A model generated the notes under the pieces. That model did no database searches. It saw only the letters and a program-made list of their open reading frames with translations, and was not told where the DNA came from. Shown piece by piece: positions 3,285 through 42,178 of a DNA stretch of 64,000 bases (the first letter of the stretch is position 1; every line of letters starts with the position of its first letter). Source of the DNA: Microglena sp. YARC (Eukaryota; Chlorophyta; Chlorophyceae; Chlamydomonadales; Chlamydomonadaceae); NCBI GenBank assembly GCA_022414725.1, contig CM039462.1, forward strand, positions 72,849,803 to 72,913,802, read 5' to 3'. The position numbers were made by a program, and so were the translations under genes.

Positions 3285-6200
3285 GTAAGTGCCACGTTTA
3301 GCGGGAGGACAGGAGCAGCGGAATCGTGGCTGGATGGATTTACATGACGCGAAAATTTGACGATTCGATCATTTGGCGTTGTCGCGGTGAAGGGGTGGGC
3401 AAAGGCTTATGCGGAATCGAAGCCGAGTCTATTGGTGCGACAGGGGGGGTGGGGTGGGGGGAGGCCGCCTGTCAATTGTCGGTCCAGGATTTACTTTACC
3501 GGCGAATCGCATCGCTTCGAAAGGCGAACGTCAAATTGTCAAACCGTTAAATTTGTGTGTCAGTACGGTTTTTATGCTTGGTTCATTGAAGAGTGGGTGC
3601 ATTCATGGGTGCCCAAGTGGATTCATGGTACTTAGATCATGAGGTGGGGGATTCTTAGGTCAAGAAGTCAGTATAGGTTGCAGCTCAGGGCTAAGTCAAG
3701 CATATGTGTCTCATCGTCGCTATGCTAGCAATTGTAACATCCTAATCGTCTGAATGGTCAAAGTGGTTTTTAAATTGTGAGACGTCAGACTTTTGTAGCG
3801 ACTCAAGTAGCACATCGTTGCCCATTACAGTGCTCAATCTTGCACCCTTGGACATTCAACATACTTGAAGGGCTTGAACCATCACAAGCACCTCAGTTTC
3901 CCTCTTTCATGATGCTAGGTTGCCTAGAAATCATGCCTTTCTCACAATAGGAAGCTGTCATGGGTATACCACAGGGACAGCTAGGGCCAATCACTTTTTA
4001 TTGACCCAAGATTACCTTGAGATATTCATTCATTGCATTGTCATAGGCAGGCTATTGTTGACCCAAGACAAGCCTGCTCCACACATCCAGGGGGATATGA
4101 ATTCGTGTTTTTCTTTTCAGCTATGAGCAGCAGCTTCTAGGCAGCTCCCCTAACTGGCTATTCAGCCAAACCTGGCGAATCCTCGAGCACCTTGAAGCTG
4201 GCACATAATCAGCTGTCCAGAACTGTTGAAAACGTTTGCTGCTGCCCAGTGGCCGGCTCAGGGAACTGCAAAGAAGCTGCTATGAAAATCCAAAAAGAAA
4301 AACCCTGATATGAATATGGGGGATATGAAGAGACACCTATTTGTATCCACCTTTATCGCACAATTCTGGATCCGAATCCTAGTGTCAAGGTTTTATTCAC
4401 ATCGCTACTTTGTAACAGAGACTCATCTCCTGCACCTTTCCCTCTGCCCCACCCCTCCGCATCACAGTTTTACACACATTGCTACTTTGTTCAGTTTTTT
4501 CTGTCCATTTAAAAGCAGCAGCTTCTAGGCAGCTCCCCTGACTGGCTATTCAGCCAAAGCTAATGCAACCTAGTGTGACTGGAAGCTGACAGAATCCACT
4601 GGCCAGAACTGTCAGAATCTTGGGGCTTAGCCCAGTGGCTGGCTCAGGGAGTTGCCTAGAAGCTGCTGCTCGTAGCTGAAAAGAAAAACTTTGACTTAGT
4701 TACACATACTCAACTCATTGCACCTATCCCTCTGTCCCCCCTCTGCAGCTAGCGCTGAAGAAATACTGAACTCATTGCACCTATCCCTCTGTCCCCCGTC
4801 TGCAGCTAGCGCTGACAAAAAACTGAACTCATTGCACCTATCCCTCTGTCCCCCCTCTGCAGCTAGCGCTGACAAAATTTATCAGCAACCTGGGTATCCT
4901 CAACCATGACAGACAAATGGACATGCAGCAGAGGAATCTGCTGAAGTTTGGCATCTTGAATGTTGTCAGCAGTGTGCAGCGAGCTTTCGATCTAGCAGTC
5001 CAGAGGGAGATCAACCCGCTGCTGTCTTCTTCACGCCCACCCCACTATTCATCAGGCCAAATCTTACCACAATTTTCCTCGGGCCAGTTTAGGAGCCCAC
5101 ACCAGCCGACCTCTCAGCAGCCCCTGCAGTACATAGGTGGAGACGTGGCCAACATGCAGCAAATGGTTGGCAATCCTTTGCAGTCTAAGCTTCCCGCCGC
5201 TCAGCACCGGAATCCGAATTTTGGCCTCTGGCCTAATGGTAGCAATATTTTGCAGCAGCAGATAGATCCAGACTCTTGCTACCGCATGGCGAATGACTCA
5301 GACAACACAGATCTGGCAGCCATGCTCTCCGCAGCAGTTAATGGCACTCAGAGCAATGCACGCACGCCCGATATCATGTCCCAGCATTTCAGCCAGCATG
5401 ATTCATTTCACTCCAATAGCAGCTCTATCCATAGCGCGCCCAATAATCCTGGGGCCCTGGAGGCTATTTGCCACATACCCTATAATGAGCTACCCCTGTC
5501 TTCTGTCTCTTCCTACGTGACACCTTACTGCTCTCAAATGATGGCAACCGACCAGGCCACCCAACTTCAAAATAACCAGGCCTTCCGCCTCCAAGATCAT
5601 GACGTACTACAGATGATGGAGGCTTCCGTTGAAAGCTTCCGCCGAATGAGTATGTACGGATCTAGCATGGTTGGCGGGCAACACATGAGCGGCGCCAGCC
5701 TGGCCGACCTGTCTCAATCCCAGCTGCAAACCACCGGCATGCTCATGGGGGACAATGGCGTTCCGGAAGGCGGTGCCACCATGTTAGGCGGAGCGCGACA
5801 TAGCCAGCAGAGCCAGCGTTTCACAGTCCATCCAGGAGAGATCATCCCTCCTCATTTCGGCGTCCTGCCTACGACAGTGCAGATAAAGATTGTACTGTTC
5901 TGCAGATCAAATCCTGGATTGAAGTAAGTTATCCCCACTTTATCCCACCCCCACCTCACCCCACCACCCCACTCCACCCCACCCACCATGAGGAAAAGGT
6001 TGCGGGGGGAGGAGTAGGCGTTTGTGTGTCCAGTGCCCTAGAGATACCTAAATAGGCTGAAGGTGGACTTGCACATCCCAAATTTGCAGCGGTACACAGG
6101 GGGCATTGGGGTCCTGGGATGTGAAGTAAGAAGCAGTACTGAGTGGGGTGTGCTGGTGTGGGCCGACTTGACAGCACCCAGAGCTGGGATGGAGGTGCTG

Positions 6201-9200
6201 CGAACACGGCTTATTTAGGGGGTCTTCAAAACCCTTTTATTTGGCTTGAAAGGGTGCTGAAAACTTACACCACCAACACCGTCGCAGTGCCACTTACACT
6301 ACCAACACCATCCATACAGAATAGGCAAGATCTGAGCCACGAGTTAGACTACAGGAAATCAAAGGGCGTTTATTGTCCCACCCACACTTACACACACACA
6401 CACCCACACTCACCCACACACACGCCCACACACCCAAATACCCACCCACCCAAACACCCAAACACCCAAACACCCAAACACCCGCCCACCCAAACACCTA
6501 CATATATATACATATATAAAGGATACTGGCTCCTAGCTCCATGCCAAAGGGGGACTAGCGATCTATTCAAAATTGGCAAGAACTGAGCCATGAGACAGGC
6601 GTAGCAGTTTCCAGGCAGCTCCCTTTCCCCATGTAGATAGGCCTAAGGTAGATTTGCTTATGTATACAGGCTAGGCCTTATTGATACGTTCCCCTTGGGC
6701 GCATAGCTGCTGTGTTCATTCTGCCTGTTGCAACCTACCATCTAGATGTATGCAGGCTAGGCGAGAACTGAGTCAAGAGTTAGGCTCTGGGTAGAATAAT
6801 CTGGATGCCTAATGTACCGCCCGGTACCTCTCGACTCGGGGCAATCCATCCCGCAGGGGACTTGTATCGGGGCTACGGCGCAGATTGTTTGGTTTGTCGG
6901 TGACACCTCGAGATCGAAAGGCGAAGATAATGATAACGCCTGGTGGGGCGTGGTGTTAAGGGAACCCGTCATACGCGGGCAGAGGACGGTCTACCACCTC
7001 GACTGGACAAGCTACCATCGCGGTTGACAACGATCTGCAACGCTAAGGATGGCCGTAGGGGGAATCGAACCCCTGACCCCGCTTCGTTTCAGCGATTTGG
7101 TGTACCATTAGACCAATCTTATTTCTAAAACGGGCTTATCGAAAGGCAAGATAGTCGTAGTATTCAGGTCAAGCAGAGTTTTTCTTTTCGGCTACCAGCA
7201 GTAGCTTCTAGGCAGCTCCTTGAGCCAGCCACTGAGCGTAACCCAAATATTGCAGCAGTTCTGGACAGCTAATGGCTGAAAAGAAAAGCTGTGAGGTCAT
7301 TAAGCCAAGCCATAATTTGCAGTGTGTGCCCGCAGTTCCCTGACAGACTGCTCTGCTGAACTAGTGCCAAACCTTATACAATCCATTTTGTCATCTTTAT
7401 CACTTGTTGATCTGTCCACTGAAAGGTAACATTACCTCAGACCTAAAACCACACCTGTGACCTGACACCTGTACATCTAAACCTGTAGCCTGCAGTTGTC
7501 AGACTTTGATGACAAGGTTGTCTACAAAGAACCCCGAACCCTGAACCCTTGTTCTCACATCCTGAGTCCTGAAACCTGTACATCTAAACCTGTAGCCTGC
7601 AGTTGTCAGACTTTGATGACGAGGTTGTCTACAATGGGCCCTGAACCCTAAAACCTTGCGCCCACACCATAAGTCCTAAAAACCATACACCGAAACCTGC
7701 AGCCTGCAGCTGGCTGACTTTGATGACAAGGCTGTCTACAATGAACTCTGAACCCTTGTGCTCACATCCTGAGTTCTGTAACCCGTTCACCAAAACCTGC
7801 AGGCTGCAGTTGTCAGACTTTGTTGACAAGATTGTCTACAGTGAAACCTGAACCCTAAACCCTGAAACCTTGTGCTCACACCCTGAATCCTGAAACCCGT
7901 TCACCGAAACCTGCAGCCTGCAGCTGGCTGACTTTGATGACAAGGTTGTCTACAAGCTTGCGTACATGAGTGAGTGCTATGGAGAACAAGAATGCATCAA
8001 CATGCTAGAGAAGCTCGGTGCTCGACTGCGAACGAAGCAGGTAGGTGGCTTTGGGTCTGGTGAGTGGTATTGCACAAGTAGGTAGCTGTTCAGCTGGGTG
8101 TTGCTACTCTTTCTTCCCCAACATGCTGGATAAGCTCAGTGCTGGGCTGCGTACAAAGCAGATAGGTGGCTTTGGGTCTGGTGAGTGGTGTTGCACCAGT
8201 AGGTAGCTGTCCGGCTGGGTGTTGCAACTGATGCTTCCCCAACATGCTAGATACGCTCAGTGCTAGGCTGCGTATGGAGCAGGTAGGTGGCTTTGGGTCT
8301 GTTGAGAGGTGTTGCACAAAATCACCAAGCTGGAGAAGCTCATTGCTCGACTGCGTACAAAGCAGGTAGGTGGCTTTGGGTCTGGTGAGTGGTGTTGCAC
8401 CAGTAGGTAGCTGTCCTGCCAGGTGTTGCTACTGATGCTTCCCCAACATGCTGGAGCAGCTCACTGCTTGGGGGCGAAGCAAAGCAGCGTCTAGGCAGCT
8501 CCTTACCCCCATTCAGCAATCAACTGGGAGACCTTGTATTCTTGGTTTTATAGGTTTTCCGGGCTTGGTATTTTGCATTGGCTTGCCTCTCCTGCACACA
8601 CGTCTCCACGGCACCCCAGCCACACTTTCCCACCCACCCCCATGAGCCTTACTACGGTCAGCAATCATCTGTGAGACCTCCAATATCAGGTTCTCCAGGC
8701 TTTGACATTTGCGATGGCGTGCCCTTCCTACATGCATGTCTCCACAGGACCCCAGTCTCACTTTCCCCCCCCCTTCACCCCCCATCCCTTTCTCACCCCC
8801 CCACCCCCCTTTCCCACTCACCTTCTGTGTACCCACTCCCCACCCCCCCCCCCCCCCCCCTCCATCCCTTTCTCACCCCCCCCCACCCCCTTTCTCACCC
8901 CCCTCCCCCCCACCCCCATCCTTTTCTCACCCCCCACCCCCTTTCCCACTCACCTTCTGTGTACCCACTCACCCACCCACCACCCTTTCTGTGTAGACGT
9001 TGATAAAGAACGGCGCTGGTTACCTAGACGTCGCTATGACCTGCCACCTCGACATGCTCAAGGTAGGCAGTGGTGTTCTCTCTTTGTGGTGGTGAGGTGG
9101 TGACATAGATGGTGGCGACACACAGATGGCGACACAGTTGATTGAGGTAGTGGCGTTCTCCCGTTCTGGTGTTGAGGTGGTGACACAGATGGTGGTGACA

Positions 9201-11662
9201 AGCGGATATGGCTGACACACAGATGGTGACACAGTTGATTGAGGTAGTGGCGTTCTCCCGTTGTGGTGTTGAGGTGGTAACATAGATGGTGGTGACACGC
9301 GGGTGGTGGTGACACACAGATGGTGACATAGTTAATTGAGGTAGTGGTGTTCTCCCGTTCTGGTGTTGAGGTGGTGACACAGATGGTGGGGACACACGGA
9401 TATGGCTGACGTACGGATGATGACTCAGTTGGTTGAGGTAGTGGTGTTCTCCCGTTCTGGTGTTGAGGTGGTGACACATGGATGGTGGTGACGCATTAAT
9501 GGTGATACAGTTGATTGAGGTAGTGGTGTTCTCCCGTTGTGGTGGTGATGTGGTGACATAGATGGTGGTGACACAGTTGATTGAGATAGTGGTGTTCTCC
9601 CGTTGTGGTGTTCTTTGGTTGTGCTGTTCTTTCTTTGTTCTGTTCTCTCGATGTGAATACCAAATTGTTTTGAACACCTTGTTACAAAGCGTGAGGCTGA
9701 GGGGGCCAGCCCGTTTGCTTGCACCCACTAGGGCCACCCCCCAATGTGTGGGTGGGTGGGGGGTGGGGGTGGGGGTGGGGGGGGGCGTCAACCCCCTGTT
9801 CTCTCTTTGTGCTCTAATCAGCTCGTCTCCTCCAGACTAAACGGAGCCAACCAAACAAAATTAAACCAAGCAAACCAAGCAAACCAAACCAATACAACAC
9901 AATATAAAATCTACAAGGCAAGGTACTACAAGACAATAAAGTTTAGTGTACAAGGCTAAGCATGGCAGTACAGTGAATTGTGATACAAATAACGCAGTAC
10001 AAAACAACACAACACTACGATGCAATGAAGTACAATACAATACTGAACCCAGCCATCTAACCCAACCCAACCCAACCAAAACAGGCAGATCCATCGGGGC
10101 AGCCGGCTGCTATATCAGATTATGCTCGCCTCACCCTCCCTGAGGGATCTTACACGGAGCTGTGCAAGGCAGTAGAGAGCAGCCATTGGCTGGCTTGGGA
10201 GCACTTTGACCAGGTGTGTGTTCCTTGCTGCAATCTTGCTTGCCTGCTGCAATCTTGCTTGCTTACTGCAATCTTGCTTGCTTGCTGCAATATTGCCTGT
10301 CTAATTTTGAGGGTAAGTTGGAAGACCCCTCCCGGATGTTGTGGAGCGGGCTTGTCTCGGGTCAACAATGGCCTGTTGAAGACAATGTAATAGAATGTAA
10401 TGTTTTGAATTTGAGTGTATGTAGGGCAGCCCAGTGGTTTTCAAATGAGGGACTTTTCAATTGATGATGATGACGAATAAATAAACTGTATGTCTTATTA
10501 CGAGGCTTGAGGTTGAGGGGACCAGCCGGTTAACTTGCACTGGGGGCAGCCGCCAATAGGGGGGGGGGGGGGGGGGGATGATTACATTTTTTCTTGGGCC
10601 CTGCTTGACTCCAAATGTGCCCACGGCCTGATGGAGTCAAGAGGGGCTTGAATGTAACCATTTGTAAGGAACGGCGACATGATATCATATGATAGTATGT
10701 CATCATATGATATCATGAAATGACGGCGGTCTAGCTAGGCCCAAGTTGCCACTCATATATGACGTCAGATAATATCATACTCCCCTTTGGTCAACATCGT
10801 ATGATATCATACTCCCCTTTGGTCAACATCATATGATATCATACTCGCCTTTGGTCAACATCATATGATATCATGCTCGCCTTTGGTCAACATCATATGA
10901 TATGCCGGTCCCTAACCATGTGTATTCTGCCAGTATTTGATTGTTTGTAGTTTAAACTGGTGGTAAGCAAGTTGGGGACTTGCCCACCACAAAATTTTGA
11001 TTGTTTGTAGTTTAAACTTTTGATTGTTTGTAGTTTAAACTGGTGGTAAGCAAAATTTTGATTGTTTGTAGTTTAAACTGGTGGTAAGCAAGTTGGGAAC
11101 TTGCCCACCACAAAATGACAACTTCTTGTTGCCGGCACATGATTGTTTGTGGTTGTAGAGGATTGTTAGTAGTTCTACCTGGTGGTAAGCAAATAGGGGA
11201 CTTGCTATCCGAAATATGTCCATTTGTGTATTGCCATTAGTTGAGTGTTTGTACTTCAGACGGGTAGTATGCAAATTGGCAACTTGCCCATCGCAGTGTG
11301 GCCATTTGTGTACTGCCAGTTCAACATTGTTTGTCCTTCAACCTGTTGGTATGCAAATCAGCAACTTTCCCACTGCAAGATGACCATTTGTTTATTGCTG
11401 GTATATGATTGTTTGTGGTTGTCGAGGATTGTTTGTAGTTAAGCCTAGTTGTGTCTAAATAGGGAACTTGCCCACCGCAATATGACAATTTTTTTGTTTC
11501 CGGTGCATTATTGTTTGTGGTTGCAGACGATTGTTTGTAGTACAGCCTAGTTGTGTCCAGATAGGGGACTTGCCCACCGGAAGCAGGGGGGGAAATAACA
11601 ACTTCCTGTGATGCGGTCTGGCAACTTTATTTTTGCCCCCCCCCCCCCCCCCCCCCCCCCCC

Positions 11663-11704
<42 letters not shown>

Positions 11705-13953
11705 ATTGTTTGTACGGTAGTTGGAGATGAGTGTTGGTACTTCAGCCCGGAAGTGGCCAGACATGGTAAAGTTCAGGTTTTAGGGTTTACGGTAGTTGGA
11801 GATGAGTGTTGGTACTTCAGCCCGGAAGTAGCCAGGTATGTTGTAGGGTGAAGAAAGCCATCCATGCGAGCTGTCTATAAGTTGTGAGGTGCATTATAGC
11901 TAGGGAACGGCAATATGATATCATGTCATATCATGTCATATGATGCCGCCGGCAGTCTGGCTAGGCTAAAGTTACCAGTTATATACAAAATCGTTTGGTG
12001 AAATTTGTATGATATCATACTCGCTTTTGGTCGACATCATATGATGTGCCGGTCCCTAATTAAAGCAGCCTATGGAAACAATGGCTTTATCCCTTCAATC
12101 CCCCCCCCCCCCCCCCCCCCCCCCCCTCTCACCCCACTTGTATCCTTCTCATCCCCCCTCTAGTGTTCTCATCCCCCCCTCTAGTGTTCTCACCCACCCC
12201 CTACTCCTCTATCCTCCTTATGCAACTCCCTGTCCCCGTCCTCTGTCCCCGTCCAACCTCCACTCTACCCCCTGCCCCCAGTGACCTCCTGTCACTCACC
12301 CAACCCCCACCCAGCCTCTACACTATGCCCTGCCCCTACCTTAACCCCTGTCACTCACCCACCCCCCTGTCCCCTTCCATTTTACCCGTAGGGCATCGTG
12401 CATTTGCTAAAGAAGCTGCCGGAGGAGGTGGTTGCCCAGAAGCTGCAGGATCTGTCCAATAGGACCCTGCACAATGTTCGCAACATCACAGGTATGGCTG
12501 AAAATTCAAACGCCTTGCCACGGGGTGTGAGATTGAAGGAACCGTCCCGTTCGCTTGCACTGGGTAATAGTTACTAAGTTGGGTTTGGTTCAGTTATGCA
12601 GACCACTCATGTGCATCACAGTTATGATTCACAGCTTGGAATGCTTGTTCTTATTAGCTCTTCTTATCAACCCCTCATGGCTCGGAGTGCAAGTTTTTTT
12701 TTGTCGAGTCCCCCTTCAGTGGGAGCCCCCAGGTTCATTATGTACCCATTGTCTATCTTTCTGTCTGCCCCTTTGTTCCTCCGTCCCTCAGCCGTCTGTC
12801 TGCCCCTCTGTCCAACTGTCTGTTTGTCTGCTCCTCTGTCCCTCAGTCTGCCTGCCTGCCCCTCTTTACCTCTGTCTGTTTGTCTGTCCCTCTATCTCTC
12901 CGCCCCTCAGTCTGACTGTCTGCCCCTCTGTCTGTATGTTTGTCTGCCTCTCTGCCCCTCTGTCCCTCAGTCTGTCTGTCTGCCTCTCAGTCTGTCTGTT
13001 TGTCTACCCCTCTGTCCTTTTGCCCTCAGTCTGTCTGTCCCTATTTCCCTAGCTCCCTAGCTCCAAGCTAAACTCTGGCTTCGGCAACAAATCAAGTCAG
13101 GCCACCTGTCGCTTTGGCAGCTGTGTCCTCCGTGGCGCCTCTCCCTGTTATTCACGACACCCATCTTTTGTTTCGCTTGTGACGCGCCGAGGAAAAGCTA
13201 TGTGCCCCTCATGACTGAACGTGTTTGTTTCGGGGGGGCCTTCTGACAATCTAGAATTTATCGTACTTGGAAATTATTCAAGGTTGGTCTTGTTCCTTGA
13301 GCCTTCTTTGCTACCGTTGGACAGTAGCGCGTGTGCATTCATGCATGGTGGTGTCCAAGGGTATCCACAATTTCTACACCTGATTTCTGCACAAATTTCA
13401 AATTTTATACAAATTTCAATTTCTACGTCAATCTCTACCGACTGATTTCTGCACCAATTTCAATTTTTGTACACCAATCTTTACTCATGATTTCTACACC
13501 TGATTTCAACACCAATTCCAATTTATGCACCAATTTATACCCCTGATTCATACACCAATTTCAATTTCTACACCAATTTGTACTCATGATTTATACTTTT
13601 TATTTCTACATCCTGAGGAACATCCTCCATGTCAGGATGTATCATGATCACTGTAAGCTCCAAGGTTGTCTACACTGTATATACCTGCTGTACATCCTCC
13701 ACTTCAGAGATACCCTTTCTCCCCTCCCTCAACAATGTTACCCCCAACCTTTTCCCACCTCAGGATGGATCATGAGCACTGTAAGCTCCAAGGTTGTCTA
13801 CACTGTATACACCTGCTGTACATCCTCCACTTCAGTGCGACCCTTTCTCCCCTCCCTAAACTACTCAACCAATGTTACTTCCCAACCTTTCCCACCTTAG
13901 GATGCATCATGAGCATCTTGAGCTCCAAAGGGAAGAGCACAAACAAGGCCTAG
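3234..13953 (+). CDS. Gene A: low-complexity N-terminal region plus two hnRNP-Q-acidic-domain-like repeats
   Basis: Seven exons: 3234-3284, 4863-5923, 7924-8040, 8997-9062, 10085-10213, 12392-12491, 13901-13953. All introns are GT-AG and phases agree throughout except one missing base in exon 2. The start ATG gives MDPSLESIKNLLGDSTE, followed by a conserved helical segment, then a long Ser/Gln/Asn/His/Met-rich region of about 290 residues. The C-terminal half has two related modules, one with DFDDKVVYK...NGAGYLDVA, the other with GIVHLLKKLPEE...NVRNITG. The second resembles the acidic N-terminal domain of hnRNP Q/R. Gene B is a paralogue with the same exon order. A role in RNA binding or regulation is inference only. 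Predicted length is about 525 residues once the exon 2 break is allowed for. The break could be an assembly error or inactivation. Confidence 0.8.
3352..3575. repeat. Dispersed repeat family F
   Basis: AATTTGACGATTCGATCATT left; CGTCAAATTGTCAAACCG right; G-rich centre. Paired with the copy at 47418. Located in gene A intron 1. Confidence 0.65.
4108..4305. mobile_element. Family-1 foldback element
   Basis: The left arm reads TTTTTCTTTTCAGCTATGAG and then CAGCAGCTTCTAGGCAGCTC. The right arm is a degenerate complement ending in AAAAAGAAAAA. It lies in intron 1 of gene A. Confidence 0.75.
4494..4688. mobile_element. Family-1 foldback element
   Basis: Left arm GCAGCAGCTTCTAGGCAGCT, right arm complementary and ending GTAGCTGAAAAGAAAAA. 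The interior closely matches the copy at 47949. It lies in gene A intron 1. Confidence 0.85.
4711..4862 (+). repeat. Three tandem copies of the gene A exon 2 acceptor (57-bp unit)
   Basis: Acceptor AGs end at 4748, 4805 and 4862, exactly 57 bp apart. Each is preceded by CTATCCCTCTGTCCCCC and followed by CTAGCGCTGA. The spacing keeps frame, but the first two copies reach TGA within seven codons; only the third continues into the exon. The copies therefore act as potential decoy acceptors. Confidence 0.85.
4863..5923 (+). CDS. Gene A exon 2 (contains one apparent missing base)
   Basis: It starts LALTKFISNLGILN and aligns with gene B exon 2 (LKHVLTQSGVLDLD), so coding begins upstream of the in-frame ATG at 4917. 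A long low-complexity region rich in Ser, Gln, Asn and Met follows. Near the end the frame gives FGVLPTTVQ, matching GVLPPAVQ of gene B, then reaches TAA at 5925. Shifting by one base after that point gives KDCTVLQIKSWIE up to the GAA|GTAAGT donor, with exactly the gene B segment length. Exon length 1061 is one short of a multiple of three, although both borders are phase 0 in gene B. One base is probably missing near 5880-5884. Confidence 0.75.
6385..6500. repeat. CACACCCA / AAACACCC minisatellite
   Basis: Short imperfect units of CACACCCA and AACACCC. Open frames here come from the repeat. Confidence 0.85.
6920..7125 (-). mobile_element. tRNA-derived SINE, head type X
   Basis: On the minus strand it has an A-box-like GGTCTAATGGTACACC and a B-box GGTTCGATTCC, then a body ending CCACCAGGCGTTATCATTA. 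The T-arm pairs well (AGGGG/CCCCT) but the acceptor stem does not pair, so it is not a tRNA gene. Related copies lie at 16570 and 49970. Confidence 0.75.
7181..7293. mobile_element. Family-1 foldback element, short
   Basis: Left arm TTTTTCTTTTCGGCTACCAG with CTTCTAGGCAGCTCC; right end GGCTGAAAAGAAAAGC. Its interior is shortened. Confidence 0.7.
7420..7923 (+). repeat. Five tandem copies of the gene A exon 3 acceptor
   Basis: AGs end at 7495, 7612, 7709, 7809 and 7923. Each is followed by a copy of the exon start (TTGTCAGACTTTGATGACAA or CTGGCTGACTTTGATGAC). Units are 97-117 bp and contain telomere-like CCCTGAACCCTAAACC text. Copies 2-4 reach a stop within about 15 codons; the fifth is the functional exon. 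Confidence 0.85.
7924..8040 (+). CDS. Gene A exon 3
   Basis: Thirty-nine codons, LADFDDKVVYKL through LGARLRTKQ, both ends phase 0. Gene B exon 5 has the same length and reads VSDFDEKVVKKM through LALRMRSKS. It forms the first half of helical repeat 1. Confidence 0.85.
8010..8465 (+). repeat. Tandem copies of the gene A exon 3 donor end
   Basis: The exon end (ACATGCTAGAGAAGCTC to AAGCAG) and following intron start recur with junctions at 8040, 8161, 8282 and 8365, plus a truncated copy at 8440-8465. The junction at 8161 is ruined (CAG|ATAGGT), while those at 8282 and 8365 keep GTAGGT. Reading through from 8040 meets a stop within 15 codons. The last copy runs into a foldback arm remnant. Confidence 0.8.
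8560..8996 (+). repeat. Duplicated segment and poly-C-rich tract before exon 4
   Basis: Two roughly 130-bp copies share TCCAGGCTTTGACATTTGCG-type text (8560 and 8690). A C-rich tract follows, with TTCTGTGTA-CCCACTC repeats. The real acceptor TTTCTGTGTAG lies at the end. Confidence 0.65.
8997..9062 (+). CDS. Gene A exon 4
   Basis: Twenty-two codons, including IKNGAGYLDVAMTCHLDML, phase 0 at both ends. Gene B exon 6 is also 66 nt and shares KNGAGYLDVA and HLDML. Confidence 0.85.
9063..9600 (+). repeat. Minisatellite starting at the gene A exon 4 donor
   Basis: About seven units of 65-98 bp, each with GAGGTAGTGGYGTTCTCCCG and GGTGTTGAGGTGGTGACA. The first unit is the donor itself (AAG|GTAGGCAGTGG). 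The GTAGTGG of later units resembles a donor. Long frames on the opposite strand come from the repeat. Confidence 0.8.
9675..9740. repeat. Dispersed repeat family D
   Basis: GTGAGGCTGAGGGGGCCAGC followed by TTGCTTGCAC. Related text lies at 10498, 12524, 18832, 18930, 19000 and 50224. Confidence 0.6.
10085..10213 (+). CDS. Gene A exon 5
   Basis: Forty-three codons ending SSHWLAWEHFDQ, phase 0. It matches the first part of gene B exon 7 (TNPWLQWDHMDQ). The following intron is absent from gene B. Confidence 0.8.
10214..10305 (+). repeat. Short tandem repeat at the exon 5 donor
   Basis: Four units of TGCTGCAATCTTGCTTGC begin about 15 bp after the donor GTGTGT. Confidence 0.75.
10665..10914. mobile_element. 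Family-2 element (ATGATATCAT ends)
   Basis: Ends are inverted: TAAGGAACGGCGACATGATA and ATGATATGCCGGTCCCTAA. The interior has TCTAGCTAGGCCCAAGTTGCC and several TATCATACTCSCCTTTGGTC units, here amplified. It is a non-autonomous element with no coding capacity. Confidence 0.75.
10925..11600. repeat. Degenerate tandem repeat
   Basis: Units contain TTGATTGTTTGTAGTTTAAAC, GGTGGTAAGCAA and ACTTGCCCACC, about 75-110 bp each. It lies in gene A intron 5. Confidence 0.75.
11634..11833. repeat. Poly-C, (TA)n and a 45-bp direct repeat
   Basis: A run of about 25 C is followed by about 19 TA units, then two copies of GGTAGTTGGAGATGAGTGTT...CCCGGAAGT. Homopolymer lengths are probably unreliable. Confidence 0.85.
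11901..12058. mobile_element. Family-2 element
   Basis: Left end TAGGGAACGGCAATATGATA, right end ATGATGTGCCGGTCCCTA. It is a compact copy showing the likely unexpanded structure of the family. Confidence 0.8.
12392..12491 (+). CDS. Gene A exon 6
   Basis: GIVHLLKKLPEEVVAQKLQD and on to NVRNIT, ending in phase 1 at ACAG|GTATGG. It corresponds to the second part of gene B exon 7. It encodes the core of helical repeat 2, the piece most like the hnRNP Q acidic domain. Confidence 0.85.
12765..13055. repeat. CTGTCTGCCCCTCTGTCCCTCAG minisatellite
   Basis: Pyrimidine-rich units of about 24 bp, many ending in CAG. It lies in intron 6 of gene A, so each unit resembles a polypyrimidine tract plus acceptor. 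Confidence 0.85.
13370..13610. repeat. Tandem repeat of TGATTTCTACACCAATTTCA type
   Basis: AT-rich units of 25-35 bp in intron 6 of gene A. Confidence 0.8.
13630..13900 (+). repeat. Two upstream copies of the gene A terminal exon
   Basis: Acceptor AGs end at 13635, 13763 and 13900, each followed by GATGNATCATGAKCA. The first two copies stay open for about 45 residues (sharing VSSKVVYTVYTCC), so they could serve as alternative last exons. The third encodes CIMSILSSKGKSTNKA and best matches gene B (CIASILNPRNK). Confidence 0.8.
13901..13953 (+). CDS. Gene A exon 7 (terminal)
   Basis: It completes the split Gly codon and ends CIMSILSSKGKSTNKA then TAG. It was chosen over two upstream near-copies because it matches the gene B C-terminus best. 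Confidence 0.75.
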
Positions 13954-15250: not shown

Positions 15251-15261
15251 ATACGTTGTCC

Positions 15262-20351: not shown

Positions 20352-20541
20352 CTCTTTTAGGCTTTGAGCAGCAGCTTCTAGGCAGCTCCCTGAGCCAGCC
20401 ACTCCACTAATCCCGAAGACTTTGGGAATTCTGAAATACTGACAGTGTCAGCTTCAAGGTGCACTAGCTTGCTTCAGGTTTGGGCTGAATTATTAAGCAG
20501 GAGAGCTGCCTAGAAGCTGCTGCTTGTAGCTGTAAACAGAA
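20352..20541. mobile_element. Family-1 foldback element
   Basis: GAGCAGCAGCTTCTAGGCAG left and CTGCCTAGAAGCTGCTGCTT right, ending GTAGCTGTAAACAGAAG. Confidence 0.85.
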
Positions 20542-20548
20542 GTAGATC

Positions 20549-32450: not shown

Positions 32451-33821
32451 ACAACTCCCACCCTCCCACCCTCTGACCCTCCCACAGCGGTATGAGAGAG
32501 AACTGCAAACCAGAAGACCCAAGCAACGAAGGTAATAGAAAGGACCTGAACCAAGAAAATGCGAACGCCGTTGCAGAAATTTGACAGCGCACTCAAATTA
32601 GAAAGCAAGAAGTAGGCTCGTAAGCAAGAAGGTGTCGGTGGAGAAAGATATGCCGTGCAGCGAATTAGTGGAAGAAGTTTTTTCTGAAGCACTACAAGTC
32701 GCTACAACTCGCGCTGCCAAGAGTGCAAGTTGAAGCAGCTACGCGAATTCTACACGTTGGTTACATGCGTCACATCAGATACGGCTGCCTACAACTACAC
32801 GCTGTACAGGGTTTGGAATAATTTTCGTCCGATTGAAGTTCGTCCGATTAAGTTGATACAAGGCGCAGGTCCGATTCCTGACTCTCGTAAGTGCATCTGC
32901 ACGGCGATTTGCAAACAGTTTGGGCTCAGAAGCGGCTTCCAACGGTTGACGAATGGCATTTCCCTAACTGTGACAAATCTTCAACGGACCTCCCCAGACG
33001 AACTCGTGGGAAAAGGTCCCTGTCAGGCTTGAGTTACCTGCTCGCTCGCAGAAGGGGGTGGAAGCGGGTGGAGGCCCGGGGTGGAGCAGGGGGGTGGAGG
33101 GGCATGCCAACTCGGGAGCATTGGAAGAGTGAATATTGGTGTCACTGGGTTCTGGGAGAAGGTTTCAGGTCGTCAAGACCCATGGACGTCAAGACCCATG
33201 CCAGTAAGGATTTTCGAGGCATGGAAAGGTCCACATGGCAGATAGAACAAACATCAAAAGAAGCTGAAAGTTGGGCGAGGTGGATTGCAGCGGTAGATCG
33301 GAAAGTGTCGTTCTCTAACCTGTCGCTACCGGCTTAGCCGCGAAAACGAATTCCCTGGCACACCTATCTTGCCGCAATTTGTGGCCATTGCCTTGCATTG
33401 CTTGAAGGCTACATTCGTACCTGAAATCAGAGGACAAGGTGGGGTTTTGAGAGAGTGATCTAGAAACCTACGACAACGACACCAAGACATGGCACGAAAC
33501 ATGCCACGCGGGTGCCGTACTGCCGCCTGAACAAATTGCCGTGCCACCATATACCCTTCCCTTTTTTCTGGCCCTTCACCTTTCCCCCCTTTTTTAGATT
33601 ACTGCTGTACCAAGCCACCAGCACCAGGCGCAGGTGTCAACTTCTTTCTTTCTACAGCGATTCTTTTTCACTGTTGTTTCTATTGCTTCTACAGCACTTT
33701 TCGTTCCTCCTGAAGCGACGCCACTTTCATCTGTTTTGAGCGTTCCGTCTTCCGCATTCTATCTACCTCCCGTTCACTTGTCCTCCGCTCTCAGTTGGCT
33801 CGCACGATTCCTTGACGAGGA
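32451..33821. promoter_or_regulatory. Divergent intergenic region between genes C and B
   Basis: About 1.37 kb separates the two start codons, so promoters of both genes should lie here. It contains a family-H repeat (32814-33013). The last 280 bases before gene B are pyrimidine-rich. No specific promoter motif is called. Confidence 0.45.
32814..33013 (+). repeat. Dispersed repeat family H, uninterrupted copy
   Basis: It matches 22556-22975 in reverse and lacks the 185-bp insertion, serving as the empty-site reference. Confidence 0.75.
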
Positions 33822-33890
33822 ATGGACTATCCGACCTTGGACGAGGAAGCACTTAAAGCAGTTTGCTCAGAGCTGTTTGACATAGCTCAG
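33822..33890 (+). CDS. Gene B exon 1
   Basis: Twenty-three codons from ATG, MDYPTLDEEALKAVCSELFD then IAQ, donor CAG|GTTCGT, phase 0. A poly-C run follows the donor by 10 bases. Confidence 0.75.
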
Positions 33891-36800
33891 GTTCGTCCCC
33901 CCCCCCCCCCCCCCCCCCCCCCCTCCAATTGCTCTGCTAGCTGCTCTATTGTGCTTCGTTTCTTGGGATACTGTGCTTGCACCGATTGCCATTATCGCGG
34001 GAGATGGTGACAAACTCTATCATATTCGCGGATATTACGTACAACTCTGCGCTCCCTTCAGTCCTCGTTCCTCCACTGCTCAGTAGTAGATCGATTTGGC
34101 GCGCGGCTTTCTCTATTCTAGACCTCAGCTAGACCTCAGCTATACCGTGAGCACTGCCCCGTCCATAACATGCTATGTGGAAGCATTGGTCGAACGGCTG
34201 GTGAACTGCCCTCTCCCCCACCCCCACCCCACCCCCTCCCAACACCAACTTCCATTGTCAACACTCTTCCCATTGTTTACTCTTGCCTTGTCCCTTCGCG
34301 ATCCGTCGATAATGCAGATATACAGCCTGGGTTTCCTTGTCCCACCTACGTGAAGTGAAACCTTCCGCCTTCACTTTCTTCAGATATCTTTCATTCCCCC
34401 CAATCTTGGGTCGCGCGTTGCTGTCCTAAGGCAGGCTCTATCTCCCTTCATGCGCGAGTAGTGTGATATGCTCCTGGCCTCCACCTGTGCCTTGTAGGAG
34501 CCGCACAACGCAATTTGTTGCCACGTATAGCCTGCTCGACATCGTCTGGAATGGGCTTCGTCCTCTTCATTCCACCATGTCTCGCCAAGCTGCTGGTACA
34601 TTTGAGCCCCCTAGGGCACCAGGATAATGTTACCATCCTCATCATCTATTACAACAAGCACCAGAGTCACCATATTCAGATTCATCATCATCGTAATTAG
34701 GAGTACGAGACAAATTGTCGATTAAATCGCTATCGGCCTAGTCGTTCGCATACATTCCGACACCTTAGCTGGACGCATGTGGAGGACGCGAACTCCTGAA
34801 GCGTCCAGCCGATAAGCGCTTTGCTTATTTTGCCCTCTCATACTCTAACCGTCCGTCTTGAGTGTGAGAGATAGATCACAACATACCATTTATTTATCCT
34901 TGTATATTCTGTGCTGGATTTACCCTAGAGATATATCTCACAGATTGATCCCACAGTTTGATTTCGCAAATGGGTCCTGTAGATTGATCCCACTTATTGA
35001 TCCCATGGTTTGATTCCACAGGTTGATCCCACTATTGATCCCACACATTGATCTCACTGATTGATCCAGCTGATTGATCCAACATATTGATCCTGCTGAT
35101 TGCCAGCATATATTGATCTTGTATTTTGATCCTGCTGATTGATCCCAAGGATTGATCCCATGGTTTGATTCCATTGAGAGATCCTGTAGATGGATCCCAT
35201 GGTTTGATTTCACAAACAGGTCCTGTAGATAGACCCCATGGTTTGATTCCACAGGTTGGTCCTGCTGATTGATCCCTCTGATTGATCTTGCTGATTGATC
35301 CCAAAGATTGATCTCATAGATTAATCCCGTAGTTTAATTCCACAGATTTATCCCTCAGACCGTTCTCTCAGATTGATCCCACAGATTGTTTCCACAGAGT
35401 TATAGCACTGATCGATCCCATGTATTGAACACTCCCTCAATTGATGCCTCGTATTTTTCTAACTGATTTATCCCACTGATTGATCCCCCAGATTGATCCC
35501 ACTGATTTATCTCATAGTGTTATCCCACAGTTTTATCCCCACTAGCTCAACCCCACCTCACCCCGCACTCCCCTCTGACTGGGCCATATATTTAATGCTT
35601 TCAACAACTACATACCTTACCTAAACTCAGTCTCTCTCTCTCTCTCTCTCTCTCTCTGTTCAGAATGGTCTCAAGCATGTGTTGACTCAGTCAGGTGTCC
35701 TTGACTTAGATGGAGGGGTGTCAGCCTTCCAGATGCAGAGGATGCAGGAAGTTATCAGCATGACCGCGAGAAAGGTGCAGCGATCTTTTCTGCTGTCAGT
35801 TGAGGCAGATGTATGCCCTGAAATTGAGAGGTAGGTGGAGGTTCACCCGTTGGTTTAACAGTTTCCTCTTCAGTGATTGTTCATACAGGTGCTACACACA
35901 GTTGGTATGCAGGAAGGGTGGTCCTGCAACAAGAAGCAAGCCTGATAAAGGACCATGTCTAGTTATCATGTCCTCCTTGAGTTCAGCCGTGGGCACATTT
36001 GAATTCAAATAGGGCACCATCATCATGATGATGATCATCATCATCATCATCATTGTCATCATCAATAACATCATGCTGAAGTAGATTTCGATTCAAACCA
36101 GGCATAAGGGGAGCACCACCCCTCTTCGGAAACCTGGTCATAGTCATTGACATTGCCACCACAATCACAATCATCAAGGCCATCATGACCATCGCCATCA
36201 TCATTGTCACCAACTAACCTGGAGATCCATCATCCATGCAACAGGATTCGACTGGATTCCTTTCGTACTTCCCACCACGTGGACTTGGAAGATCAGCTGC
36301 AACGAAGCTCTGCAAACTCGCAAAAGGTAGACTCCAGCATGTCAAGCCACAGCTCATTGTCTCTGGGCCAACATTCCTACCAGGTAAATGATGTCATGTG
36401 TTTGTTTGCCAGTTTCGTTGGTTATCTGTTAGGATGTTATGTTATTTGTTGGAATGCTCGATAGGTTGATAATAGAGCTGAGGCAGAATGTTTATCGTGC
36501 TTCGCTGGCTCCTTTCCAAGAGGCCTGCTGGATGGCCCGAGCTTGATGTCTCTGAGCCAGCATTCTTCCCTGGTAGATCCCAGAAGTCTTGTATTGGTTT
36601 GTTTACTTTTTTTGTGGCTGGGGGATTAATCGGTTGATGCATGTAGGATCTTAATTTTGTTTGGAGGCCCAAGTTAGGGGGGACCGCTGGAACATAGCCA
36701 TAAGCGCTTGGTTCCTGGGTGTGACTCTTTGGAGTCTTAAATAGTAGTGTTGATAGCAGATTACTTCGAGTGTATGGCAGAGTACTTTATCCTCATTCAG

Positions 36801-39800: not shown

Positions 39801-42178
39801 AGCCTGGAATAGCATAAACATAGCCTGGAACAGCATGTAACAATATGGAAAACATTTGCCCGAAAGGGACTGAAATAGTCGTACTCACTAATGTGACATA
39901 TCGGACAATATCGGACAAGATGCTGGGAGCTGTACCTTTCAATCATCTAACTCAGTGATCTAGTGAACAAGGTTACTACTAACACTACCAATCGGAATGC
40001 TAGCCTGTTTGTCAGTGAGGCTAGCACTTATGCCGCAATCATGCTTGACTTCAGATCCCATCGGCTCACATATAGGTCCAGCAATACAATTCAGAAAGAG
40101 TTGAAAGCTTAGGTTTACGAACAGAAATAAGAAGACACTTAAAATAGGCATATGAGTAGTGAACGGTGATATGATATCATATGATATTATGTCATCAGTC
40201 TGGCTAGGTTAAAGTTACCAGTTGTATACAAGATCATATTATGCAATTTGTATGATATATGATTAGGGATCGGCAATATGATATCATATGATATCATATG
40301 ATGCCGGCAGTCTGACTAGATAACTTTGGCCTGGGGCATCATATCATATGATATTAAATCATATGATATCAAACACGTCTTTGGTCAACATCATATGATT
40401 TGCCGTTCCCTATGTATGATATCATACTCGCCTTTGGTCTATATCATTTGATATGCCGGTCCCTTCATATGACCACCCACTCACAAGCTTGTGTGCTCTC
40501 CCCTTGCAGTCTGTTATGAAGAATGGTGCCGGCTACCTTGATGTTGCCGTCAGCAGCCATCTGGACATGCTCATGGTAAGTTGCTGTGATTTCTGCACTG
40601 ACACAAAAATGCAACGCATTCAAAATTTGACGTTGGTCTTTGGATGCGACGCGATTCCCCGGTAAAGTGAATTTGGGGCTGATGAACCGGCAGGTGGCAT
40701 TTCCCCCCCCATGTTGAACCTATGAACTGTGGGATTGTTCGATTCTGCTGAACTCCCTGCCGACCCCATCTTAAAACGTGTGGTGCTCCAATCTTGCAAC
40801 CATTACACTATGGACACCCTAGCCTCTTGTATTCGAACACATATCCTATGCATAGCTATTCTTTTCAGCTACGATCTGCTGCTTCTGGGTAGCTCCATGG
40901 GCTAGCCACTGGGCCAAGCCCCAATATTTCAGTTTTATTAGGAACGTGATTCCGCTAGCCTCAAGATGCACTACGTTGCTATACTTCTCGCTGGAAATCA
41001 GGCCAGGGGAGCTGTCAAGAAGCTACTGCTGGTAGCTGGAAAAAAAGCTGTGGCATACCCTGTATAACCAAACCTCCCTCAGGCACAACCTGACTCACTC
41101 TGTCCCACTCCCTCATGCACACACTGACTCACTCTAGCATACCCTGACTCACTCTGTCCCGCTCCCTCAGGCACACCGCACCAGCTTTGGCACCAGCAGC
41201 ATTGAAGAGTACGCGAAGAAGATGCTGAGCCCGATGGTGCTTGACAGACTGACCAAAAGCATCAACACCAACCCGTGGCTTCAATGGGATCACATGGACC
41301 AGGGCATCATCCAGCTACTGACCAAGCTTCCTGAGCAGGGTGCCCTTATGCGCCTGCAAGAGGTCGCTTCTAGAAGCTTCAGAGGGGTTGAGAATGTGAC
41401 TGGTGAGTCCGAGGTAGTGTTTGTTGTGTGGTGCAGAAGCTTCTAATGCTTCTGAGGGGTTGAGAATGTGACTAGTGAGTCAGAGGTAGGTTTTTTTTAG
41501 CGGTGCAAAAACAGTGGTGGGGGGCAGGAGTTGGGGGGGTAACAGAAATAGTGGCGGGAATTGGGTTGGGGGGGGGGGATGGGGTCAAAATCAGATCGAG
41601 CGACTCGGTGCGGCCCTTGTGCAACGCACTGCCCCCCAAACCCCAGGGGCTTGGTGCAGGGGGTTGCAGGGGCATTTCTGTCTAGTTCAACCAGACCCAC
41701 GCAGTGACAGAATGGCGACGGAGCGGCGAGGCGTCCGCGGAAAAAAAGTAGAGTCCGAAGCAAGGAACACAGTCTTGGTCCTCTCTCCCTCCTCACCCTT
41801 CCCACCCTCCTTTTCTGCCTCCCTCCAGCCTCCAAGTCCTTTCAACCTATCTGGCTATCCCTGGACAGTAACACACACATACACACACACATGCATTAGT
41901 GCCCACCACCCACACAGTAGCGCTCTTCGCCTGGCCCCCCTCCCATTTGCATGATGCACAGCCACCCTAAACCCTAATGCTTGCAAGATGCACCGCCAGC
42001 CTCAACCCCAAACCTTTAGGATTGCAGGATGCATTGTCAGTCGAAACCTAAACCCCTAACATGCTTCCATCTTCTCCCCCTCCGGCTTGCAGGTTGCATT
42101 GCCAGCATTCTGAATCCTAGGAACAAGTGCTCGCCACAGGAGGGAGGAGGACCTGCCGCTCCACCAAAGCAGGCCTGA
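33822..42178 (+). CDS. Gene B: paralogue of gene A with two hnRNP-Q-acidic-domain-like repeats
   Basis: Eight exons: 33822-33890, 35664-35830, 36245-36383, 37045-37899, 38606-38722, 40510-40575, 41171-41402, 42093-42178. All introns are GT-AG and phases match throughout, giving 576 residues. The N-terminal helical segment (MDYPTLDEEALKAVCSELFD, then an AFQMQRMQEVISM region) is followed by a Ser/Gly/Asn/His-rich region of about 330 residues. Repeat 1 has VSDFDEKVVKKM and NGAGYLDVAVSSHLDML. Repeat 2 has GIIQLLTKLPEQGALMRLQE and FRGVENVTGCIASIL. Repeat 2 resembles the hnRNP Q/R acidic domain, where a GALAVLQQF-like core is followed by HVQN. No RRM is present. Molecular function is unknown. It is intact, unlike gene A. 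Exon 7 is one exon where gene A has two. Confidence 0.85.
34935..35545. repeat. GATTGATCC tandem repeat in gene B intron 1
   Basis: Degenerate units of about 15 bp, GATTGATCCCACTGATT. Asp/Gln-poor minus-strand frames here are products of the repeat. Confidence 0.9.
35664..35830 (+). CDS. Gene B exon 2
   Basis: It follows a (TC)n tract and TTCAG. It encodes NGLKHVLTQSGVLDLDGG and VQRSFLLSVEADVCPEIE. The donor AG|GTAGGT leaves phase 2. It aligns with the start of gene A exon 2 (VQRAFDLAVQREIN). Confidence 0.8.
36020..36220. repeat. CAT trinucleotide-rich tract
   Basis: CATCATCATCAT units, partly degenerate, in gene B intron 2. Confidence 0.8.
36245..36383 (+). CDS. Gene B exon 3
   Basis: Acceptor CATGCAACAG; it completes the split Arg codon, then IRLDSFRTSHHVDLEDQLQR and a Ser-rich tail ending GQHSYQ. 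Gene A has no separate exon here; the equivalent region lies within its exon 2. Confidence 0.7.
37045..37899 (+). CDS. Gene B exon 4
   Basis: It encodes VAPFQQTQQGLIFMSNYDMM, then a low-complexity region, ending GVLPPAVQSRVLEVAQALTI then IQ. An in-frame alternative acceptor lies 15 bp upstream (GGTCAG at 37024-37029), which would add five residues. Confidence 0.8.
38606..38722 (+). CDS. Gene B exon 5
   Basis: VSDFDEKVVKKMCFLSETYG and on to LALRMRSKS, 39 codons. The acceptor TTCATTTCAAG was chosen because it restores phase 0 and matches gene A exon 3. An earlier AG at 38548 leads to a stop. Confidence 0.85.
38723..39030 (+). repeat. Minisatellite starting exactly at the gene B exon 5 donor
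   Basis: Seven units of 40-55 bp with GAGTTTCACTGGGTTTTTTG and GTGCTGTGTGTGTGAGA. The first begins with the donor GTGAGTTTCACTGGG. Later units read GAGAGTTTCACTGGG, so the donor GT is mostly lost. Confidence 0.85.
39040..39250. repeat. Dispersed repeat family C
   Basis: ACTCGGTGCGACCTCAGTGC, GACGCGCTGCCTCCC and GACTAGTTTAGCTGGGCCC. Confidence 0.65.
39345..39562 (+). mobile_element. tRNA-derived SINE, diverged head
   Basis: Head TTGGGTCAATTGTAGAGC with B-box-like GGGGTTGAATCCC; body GTCAACCGCCATGGTAGC to CCACCAGGCATTATCATTAC. Confidence 0.65.
40156..40465. mobile_element. Family-2 element, outer copy split by an inner copy
   Basis: The left part begins GTGAACGGTGATATGATATC and stops after TTTGTATGATATATGAT. 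The right part resumes TGTATGATATCATACTCGCC and ends ATGCCGGTCCCTT. An inner element of the same family separates them. Confidence 0.75.
40264..40412. mobile_element. Family-2 element, inner (nested) copy
   Basis: TAGGGATCGGCAATATGATA left and ATGATTTGCCGTTCCCTA right. It is flanked by repeats of TGTATGATAT, compatible with a target-site duplication, though the AT-rich context makes this ambiguous. Confidence 0.75.
40510..40575 (+). CDS. Gene B exon 6
   Basis: SVMKNGAGYLDVAVSSHLDM then LM, 22 codons, acceptor CCCTTGCAG and donor ATG|GTAAGT, phase 0. Confidence 0.85.
40858..41047. mobile_element. Family-1 foldback element
   Basis: TTCTTTTCAGCTACGATCTG left, GAGCTGTCAAGAAGCTACTG right with GGTAGCTGGAAAAAAAG. 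Located in gene B intron 6. Confidence 0.8.
41070..41170 (+). repeat. Three tandem copies of the gene B exon 7 acceptor
   Basis: CCTGACTCACTCTGTCCC and CTCCCTCAGGCACA recur. The AG at 41082 is followed by exon-like GCACAACCTG but reaches TGA within about 15 codons. The middle copy has lost its AG (CTCATGCACA). Confidence 0.8.
41171..41402 (+). CDS. Gene B exon 7
   Basis: AHRTSFGTSSIEEYAKKMLS, TNPWLQWDHMDQGIIQLLTK and SRSFRGVENVTG, ending in phase 1 at ACTG|GTGAGT. It combines the content of gene A exons 5 and 6 with no intron at the Gln-Gly junction. Confidence 0.85.
41362..41500 (+). repeat. Duplicated gene B exon 7 donor end
   Basis: GAGGGGTTGAGAATGTGACT followed by GGTGAGTCCGAGGTAG occurs again about 66 bp downstream as GACTAGTGAGTCAGAGGTAG. 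Confidence 0.8.
41590..41745. repeat. Dispersed repeat family C
   Basis: GAGCGACTCGGTGCGGCCC, CAACGCACTGCCCCCC and TCTAGTTCAACCAGACCCAC. Confidence 0.65.
41945..42092 (+). repeat. Upstream copies of the gene B terminal exon acceptor
   Basis: TTTGCATGATGCACAGCCAC, CTTGCAAGATGCACCGCCAG and ATTGCAGGATGCATTGTCAG precede the real CTTGCAGGTTGCATTGCCAG. Spacing is about 35-75 bp. Only the third decoy keeps the CAG. Confidence 0.8.
42093..42178 (+). CDS. Gene B exon 8 (terminal)
   Basis: It completes the split Gly, then CIASILNPRNKCSPQEGGGP, ending in TGA. Matches the gene A terminal exon at CI-SIL. Confidence 0.85.

What the first reader, a model, noticed from the sequence alone, without database searches (positions are those of the whole stretch)
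4711..42178. Splice junctions of both paralogues are bordered by tandem copies of the junction itself
Around most junctions of genes A and B the exon edge plus splice site is repeated several times on the intron side: acceptors at 4748/4805/4862, at 7495/7612/7709/7809/7923, at 13635/13763/13900, at 41082-41170 and at 41947-42092; donors at 8040/8161/8282/8365, at 9063-9585, at 38723-39030 and at 41402/41468. Copies carry exon sequence, not only intron sequence, so the duplications cross the splice site. Nearly all upstream acceptors and downstream donors lead to stops, or have lost GT or AG. This happens independently at different junctions of two paralogues, so it looks like a recurrent process (slippage at exon edges, or duplication linked to AGGT-type sites as proposed for intron gain) and not one event. 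It could provide a pool of decoy splice sites that produce transcripts subject to nonsense-mediated decay.
Basis: seen in the sequence. Interest (0 to 1): 0.88.

Follow-up and report, generated by a model that had tools for sequence, protein, structure and literature searches.

The report
Duplicated splice junctions in algal introns
In this green alga roughly three in ten of the splice junctions examined have extra tandem copies of the junction itself in the neighbouring intron, most with intact splice signals; this looks like a tolerated by-product of very active tandem duplication in introns, and it offers a natural test of how cells pick one splice site among closely similar copies.

Summary
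Partly confirmed. Five window junctions (four in gene A, one in gene B) are clearly crossed by tandem copies carrying 15-45 bp of exon. Two more (41171, 42093) are marginal. Two listed donors (9062, 38722) are not crossed. The claim that decoys mostly lost GT or AG is wrong: 10 of 11 window decoys and 89 of 97 in the larger set keep it. Decoy use would usually give a stop (77 of 97). The phenomenon is wider: 46 of 141 junctions in A, B and 19 dynein regions, 7 of 27 in three CCT genes, plus kinesin genes and a third paralogue. Direct copies sit on the intron side (46 of 141 junctions; exon side 1, inverted 1). But introns are saturated with tandem duplications: 22% of intron points after copy-number correction against 33% of junctions (ratio 1.47, 1.12-1.83). 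About 1.2-fold of that is expected detection bias, and there is no AG|GT preference. Best explanation: neutral tandem duplication, tolerated because the exon-proximal site is used (exon definition; inferred). Junction targeting is at most weak. No RNA was available.

The parts
4706..4878 (+). Acceptor array of gene A: three copies of a 57-bp unit; true acceptor ends at 4862, decoy acceptors at 4748 and 4805; 15 bp of exon in each copy
4863..5923 (+). Gene A exon (LALTKFISNLG...); the donor at 5923 is inferred from GT and reading phase
   Evidence: not covered by a gene model
7450..7955 (+). Acceptor array of gene A: five copies, units about 100-117 bp; true acceptor ends at 7916 (or 7923); decoys at 7488, 7595, 7702, 7802 (all keep AG)
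7917..8040 (+). Gene A exon (..LADFDDKVVYK...RTKQ)
   Evidence: spliced alignment to P0001 and P0003
7998..8405 (+). Donor array of gene A: true donor at 8040, copies at 8161 (GT lost), 8282, 8365; 43-45 bp exon
8997..9062 (+). Gene A exon (TLIKNGAGYLDVAMTCHLDMLK)
9065..9614 (+). Intronic minisatellite next to donor 9062; begins 2-3 bp inside the intron, no exon sequence, so not junction-crossing
10089..10213 (+). Gene A exon; the intron after it (10214-12391) is absent from gene B
12392..12491 (+). Gene A exon
13620..13928 (+). Acceptor array of gene A: true acceptor ends at 13900; copy at 13763 (AG kept) and a further one ending at 13635; 26-28 bp exon
35664..35830 (+). Gene B exon; the following exons are 36245-36383, 37015-37899, 38606-38722, 40510-40575, 41171-41402 and 42093 to about 42178
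   Evidence: as in deposited model P0001
38725..39028 (+). Intronic minisatellite next to donor 38722; no exon sequence in the copies, not junction-crossing
41083..41176 (+). Marginal acceptor array of gene B: copies share 6 bp of exon; one decoy has lost AG
41366..41510 (+). Donor array of gene B: true donor 41402, decoy donor 41474 (GT kept), 37 bp exon, 72-bp shift
41940..42110 (+). Degenerate acceptor copies before exon 42093; seen by eye, below threshold
   Evidence: sequence; negative

Best explanation
The introns of this alga are being enlarged by frequent local tandem duplication (periods mostly about 25-220 bp, two to some tens of copies). The process ignores exon borders. A duplication inside coding sequence is removed by selection. 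One that spans a border is tolerated, because the copy joined to the full exon keeps working and the extra copies (exon edge plus splice site plus some intron) end up inside the intron. Cells are inferred to use the exon-proximal site, as expected under exon definition with introns of several hundred bases: every decoy would lengthen the exon. Decoys then decay roughly neutrally. Shown: the arrays, their direction, their spread over unrelated genes, intact decoy splice dinucleotides that decay no faster than comparable sites. Inferred: proximal-site use, tolerance by exon definition, the DNA-level mechanism of duplication.
For: Junction crossing in 46 of 141 junctions of A, B and 19 dynein regions and 7 of 27 in three CCT genes; seen also in kinesins and paralogue C. 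Direct copies lie on the intron side at 46 of 141 junctions, on the other side at 1, inverted at 1. Intron points are themselves 47% duplicated raw (6884 of 14715) and 22% after correction for copy number; exon interior 4.4% (608 of 13930). The raw profile runs smoothly from about 45-50% deep in introns to 34% at the border and about 20% at 75 bp beyond it, with no spike. No AG|GT preference; donors and acceptors equal. Splice dinucleotides of decoys change no faster than constrained codon positions (ratio 0.60, 0.28-1.00). Median intron 662 bp, 70 introns; exon definition is reported to favour sites closest across the exon when introns are long (PMC9225289, abstract). The gene B model uses the proximal sites at its arrays.
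Against: Junctions are crossed 1.47 times as often as copy-corrected intron points (1.12-1.83; 1.07-1.89 without R1 and R2). Placement tests give 44 crossing components against 23-32 expected, ratio 1.4-1.9. Detection bias explains only about 1.2 of this, so a modest true excess may remain. Decoy-to-decoy differences are higher at third codon positions (90 of 803 against 48 of 801 and 51 of 798; decoy-private 51 against 26 and 35, p=0.014), which strictly neutral copies should not show; repeated copying from the evolving exon could explain it, but this was not shown. Prevalence differs between gene families (no clear case among 136 kinase matches; one among 64 CCT matches; by tables that see only long copies). 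Proximal-site use rests on one gene model, not on RNA; another model, P0124, does not end its exon at the proximal donor of its array.
Confidence: 0.7

Rival explanations
1. A duplication process aimed at exon edges or splice sites (slippage at borders, AGGT-linked duplication, or damage coupled to splicing or transcription).
For: Junction excess 1.47 over copy-corrected intron points and 1.4-1.9 in placement tests. Introns of gene A, dyneins and CCT genes (18%, 27%, 21%) are richer in duplications than window stretches outside A and B (2-9%).
Against: No AG|GT association (23 of 46 against 51 of 95); donors and acceptors equal; smooth profile without a spike; about 1.2-fold of the excess expected from detection bias; gene B introns only 4% and kinase flanks 0-14% (eight loci).
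Confidence: 0.15
2. The decoy arrays are functional: they divert part of the transcripts into nonsense-mediated decay and so set expression levels.
For: 89 of 97 decoys keep GT or AG; 77 of 97 would give a stop; third-position excess among decoy differences.
Against: Stops are what random intron read-through of this length is expected to give (reasoned, not simulated); splice dinucleotides are at most slightly better kept than constrained codon positions (ratio 0.60, 0.28-1.00); at the one junction compared between A, B and C the arrays have different units and B has none.
Confidence: 0.07
3. [quoted passage not shown]
For: Duplications crossing an intron-exon boundary have been reported to create an intron in potato (PMC4974935, abstract). 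Gene A has one intron (10214-12391) that gene B lacks.
Against: In gene B the copy lies wholly inside an intron and the model shows no extra intron there. The intron that A has and B lacks has no crossing array, and exon breaks of paralogue C suggest that C has it too. No AG|GT link.
Confidence: 0.04
4. Assembly artefact: collapsed or falsely repeated stretches.
For: Long tandem arrays are error-prone in assembly (general knowledge).
Against: Copies have diverged (median identity 0.89 at 46 junctions), differ individually, and occur at dozens of junctions on several large contigs.
Confidence: 0.03

Closest known systems
[quoted passage not shown] Drosophila near intron pairs, PMC2891723)
   Same: A short tandem duplication, in potato one that crosses an intron-exon boundary and carries the splice signals (abstracts read).
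   Different: There a new intron arises; here, as far as tested, the copies stay inside the old intron. Here crossed junctions exist in two to seven copies and make up about three in ten of those sampled.
Intronic minisatellites (VNTR-type tandem repeats)
   Same: Local, direct, head-to-tail, variable number of diverging copies.
   Different: The copies include 15-145 bp of coding exon and a complete splice site, and such arrays are frequent here.
Splice-site proximity rule under exon definition (PMC9225289, abstract)
   Same: Geometry: the inferred used site is the one closest across the exon, beside introns of several hundred bases.
   Different: There: alternative sites collected in a database of usage, and tests in cells. 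Here: natural copies of one junction; use not measured.
Dual-specific splice sites in tandem-repeat genes such as UBC (PMC10809524, abstract)
   Same: Splice sites multiplied by tandem repetition.
   Different: UBC sites delimit whole coding repeats and act as donor and acceptor; here the copies are mostly partial exons in introns and AG|GT is not enriched.
Introners (PMC9860276, seen only in the search listing)
   Same: Repetitive sequence associated with introns.
   Different: Introners are described as elements copied into many genes; here each array consists of local copies of its own junction.

Membership tests
Intronic minisatellite / local tandem duplication | Direct copies within a short distance | tested here: met
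   46 of 141 junctions with direct copies on the intron side, 1 with an inverted copy, 1 with a direct copy on the other side
Intronic minisatellite / local tandem duplication | Copy-number polymorphism between individuals | not testable with these tools
   One assembly only
[quoted passage not shown]
   Gene B model P0001 has no extra intron at the 41402 array. Three borders of the conserved exons are shared by A and B; A has one further intron (10214-12391), without a crossing array. Tested at this gene pair only
[quoted passage not shown]
   AG|GT at 23 of 46 crossed and 51 of 95 uncrossed junctions, p=0.72
Exon-definition choice of the proximal site | Flanking introns longer than a few hundred bases | tested here: met
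   70 introns, median 662 bp, range 59-2179
Exon-definition choice of the proximal site | Proximal site used in transcripts | not testable with these tools
   No RNA; gene model P0001 agrees at its arrays, while model P0124 drops 24 residues at one
Regulated decoys with nonsense-mediated decay | Decoy splice sites under selection | tested here: inconclusive
   Ratio of change at splice dinucleotides to codon positions 1+2 is 0.60 (0.28-1.00)
Introners | Dispersed near-identical copies creating introns | not tested
   Dispersal of array units over the genome was not searched
Dual-specific splice-site arrays | Each repeat border used as donor and acceptor | not testable with these tools
   Needs RNA

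The most novel reading that the evidence does not exclude
Tandem duplication in this genome is coupled to transcription or splicing, so that introns and their borders are duplicated more than other DNA, and the resulting arrays of intact decoy junctions are held in check by strict exon-proximal splice-site choice. This would make it a genome that runs, in many genes, the classical duplicated-splice-site experiment.
Probability: 0.17. Interest if true: 0.85.

Novelty: new variant of a known kind. Interest (0 to 1): 0.6.

Why it matters
How a cell picks one of several equally good splice sites is usually studied with constructs. Here nature has placed closely similar complete junctions, about 50 to several hundred bases apart, next to about three in ten sampled exon borders, donors and acceptors alike. 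RNA from this alga would show directly whether distance across the exon decides. The arrays also show how introns grow, and they may mislead annotation: the deposited model for CCT zeta lacks 24 conserved residues exactly at such an array.

Tried and rejected
AGGT-linked origin: no association. Junction hot spot: only a 1.2- to 1.5-fold excess remains (1.4-1.9 before correction for detection). Loss of decoy sites by selection: not seen. Inverted or wrong-side copies, which would point to other mechanisms: 1 of 141 junctions each. Chance similarity: rejected. Coding function of decoys: decoy differences lean to third positions; I did not take this as function, because repeated copying from an evolving exon gives the same pattern. 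One search had minus-strand loci in the wrong orientation; corrected, which printed its results and then failed on saving; repeated. One search aligned copies to themselves and was replaced. The protein search scored only 16 of 381 candidates. Microhomology at unit ends was looked at only informally and supports no claim.

Rows dropped: of 90 introns found in the 19 dynein regions, 59 were kept (both exons at least 60 bp, GT-AG, under 6 kb); one junction (R17, 4293) was dropped as low-complexity. In the CCT genes 27 junctions were chosen by hand, mostly those consistent between alignments to different reference proteins; no low-complexity filter was applied to them. Regions R1 and R2 were fetched because copies had been seen there, and T3 had one visible copy; figures without R1 and R2 are given, and without T3 the CCT count is 4 of 20.

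Full report
What the window is. The window is G000:C1:72849803-72913802 of a 568-Mb genome in 2390 contigs. Gene B is identical to a deposited protein model, P0001 (EukProt gene18160-24590_t). The nearest named relative is from Chlamydomonas sp. UWO 241 (P0003). A second model of the same naming style, P0124, matches another locus of this genome at 100% over 97% of the stretch searched. The organism is therefore inferred to be a chlamydomonadalean green alga. Chlamydomonas sp. ICE-L (532-542 Mb; passages of PMC11228838 and PMC9580922) is likely but not shown. Genes A and B belong to a multi-copy family: the gene B product passes the Pfam cut-off for hnRNP_Q_AcD (30.1 against 26 bits), and one search shows 31 related exon matches at many loci.

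The observation. Self-alignment of each junction against its intron shows true crossing at A acceptors 4863, 7917 and 13901, A donor 8040 and B donor 41402. B acceptor 41171 is marginal (6 bp of exon). The arrays beside donors 9062 and 38722 start 2-3 bp inside the intron and carry no exon. Acceptor 42093 has degenerate copies seen by eye only. With one fixed criterion (40-bp junction window, at least 30 of 40 identical, at least 13 of 20 on each side, copy on the intron side within 1.5 kb) 5 of 24 window junctions are crossed: A 4 of 11, B 1 of 13. Of the 11 decoys of these five junctions, 10 keep GT or AG, and reading on from each of the 11 meets a stop codon.

Not confined to these genes. 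A search with the dynein domain PF12774 (66 matches) showed strings of partial exon matches ending at the same profile position, for example seven matches of about positions 63-68 to 107-108 after the exon at C1:61043188. Spliced alignment to dynein proteins (P0004-P0123) gave exon borders in 19 regions. Together with A and B, 46 of 141 junctions are crossed (22 of 69 donors, 24 of 72 acceptors). Without R1 and R2, which were fetched because copies had been seen there, it is 34 of 117. Regions vary: R9, R13 and R19 have 0 of 6 each. In three CCT genes 7 of 27 hand-chosen junctions are crossed, 4 of 20 without T3. The kinesin table shows the same pattern at about seven junctions (my reading of the 128 matches); two were read at DNA level, a donor in three copies and an acceptor in three copies. 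The CCT table shows one (64 matches) and the kinase table no clear case (136 matches), so prevalence may differ between gene families; such tables see only copies with some 30 or more exon residues. At the 46 crossed junctions the nearest copy carries a median of 61.5 bp of exon (15-145) at median identity 0.89, and the junction exists in two to seven copies. Two of the 46 copies span at least the whole of a short exon of the model (R15), where the model may be wrong.

Paralogue C. A third family member, P0002, lies at C2:33394031-33404983. The acceptor homologous to A's 7917 is present there in five copies, spaced 95, 136, 136 and 136 bp. A's intron matches this stretch only at the exon piece and at most about 23 bp beside it. 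B has no copy at this junction. The same border was thus probably multiplied twice independently.

Direction. Direct copies on the intron side occur at 46 of 141 junctions, direct copies on the other side at 1, inverted copies at 1. This is the signature of local tandem duplication.

Is the junction special? Introns themselves are saturated. By the same criterion 47% of intron points are duplicated (6884 of 14715). Weighting each point by one over its copy number gives 22%; exon interior points give 4.4% (608 of 13930). The raw profile falls smoothly from about 45-50% in the intron to 34% at the border and about 20% at 75 bp beyond it, and stays at 18-20% to 150 bp, where the bins already run past short exons. 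The junction fraction divided by the corrected intron fraction is 1.47 (bootstrap over regions 1.12-1.83; 1.07-1.89 without R1 and R2). By group: dyneins 41 of 117 against 27%, A 4 of 11 against 18%, B 1 of 13 against 4%, CCT 7 of 27 against 21%. Random placement of repeat units gives 44 observed against 23-32 expected, depending on how fragments are merged and unit length is taken. A simulation shows that constraint on the parent exon makes junction copies 1.14-1.23 times easier to detect. AG|GT is not enriched at crossed junctions (23 of 46 against 51 of 95). So a true excess, if any, is small. Duplication density differs between stretches: 2-9% in window stretches outside A and B, 0-14% in the flanks of eight kinase loci. 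That leaves room for a link to transcription, which was not tested.

What decoys would do. Of 97 decoys, 8 have lost the dinucleotide, 77 would give a stop, 10 a frameshift and 2 a clean insertion. The splice dinucleotides differ in 8 of 194 positions, against 88 of 1289 at codon positions 1 and 2 and 227 of 1358 on the intron side. Decoys are thus not purged and not clearly maintained. Differences between neighbouring decoys are higher at third codon positions (90 of 803 against 48 of 801 and 51 of 798), and decoy-private changes too (51 against 26 and 35; p=0.014). Repeated copying from an exon that itself evolves would give this; it is the main observation that does not follow from simple neutral decay.

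Intron positions. A and B share three borders of their conserved exons; A has one further intron (10214-12391) that B lacks. Exon breaks of paralogue C suggest the same intron there. Neither of its borders is crossed. So nothing here points to an intron made by these duplications.

Mechanism. Every decoy lies on the side that would lengthen the exon. With introns of median 662 bp and the reported preference for sites closest across the exon when introns are long (PMC9225289, abstract), exon-proximal choice would make the copies nearly harmless. The gene B model agrees. The CCT zeta model P0124 lacks 24 conserved residues at the end of the exon whose donor has three decoy copies; this looks like an annotation error caused by the array, though altered splicing cannot be excluded.

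Known work. Tandem duplications giving a new intron, in potato one crossing an intron-exon border, are known (PMC4974935, abstract; PMC2891723, abstract), and splice sites multiplied in tandem-repeat genes are known (PMC10809524, abstract). In the rows shown, the literature searches listed no report of junction-crossing arrays at this frequency; most of these listings were capped (for example 12 of 69 and 12 of 76 papers). The library lacks most subscription papers; the original ICE-L genome paper did not appear in the rows. I recall, without a call, experiments of the 1980s with artificially duplicated splice sites.

Verdict.

Noticed in passing
window, 31 sites, e.g. 4131-4148 (+) with 4262-4279 (-), 4519-4536 (+) with 4648-4665 (-), 20372-20389 (+) with 20502-20519 (-): A motif in inverted pairs (CAGCTTCTAGGCAGCTCC at up to 3 mismatches, 31 matches against 0.06 expected), many pairs spanning about 130-150 bp, in introns of A and B and elsewhere in the window; looks like a MITE-type element whose end resembles a splice acceptor (TTTTCTTTTCAG).
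   Followed up: partly
L068:4042-4206 and P0124: The deposited CCT zeta model of this species lacks 24 conserved residues exactly at an exon end whose donor has three decoy copies.
   Followed up: partly
window 48625-49340 and 62950-63715: The same 17-bp and 46-bp tandem units occur at both places in the same order, suggesting a segmental duplication about 14 kb apart.
   Followed up: no
window 59748-60747: A run of 1000 N, assembly gap or withheld stretch, within an AT-rich part.
   Followed up: no
R9, G000:C2:34698059-34710639: One dynein heavy-chain gene has very long open exons, few introns and no crossed junction (0 of 6), unlike most of its relatives.
   Followed up: no
window 10214-12391: Gene A has an intron here that paralogue B lacks; paralogue C seems to have it, so B probably lost it.
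   Followed up: partly
crossed junctions: Decoy copies differ from each other more at third codon positions than strict neutrality predicts.
   Followed up: partly
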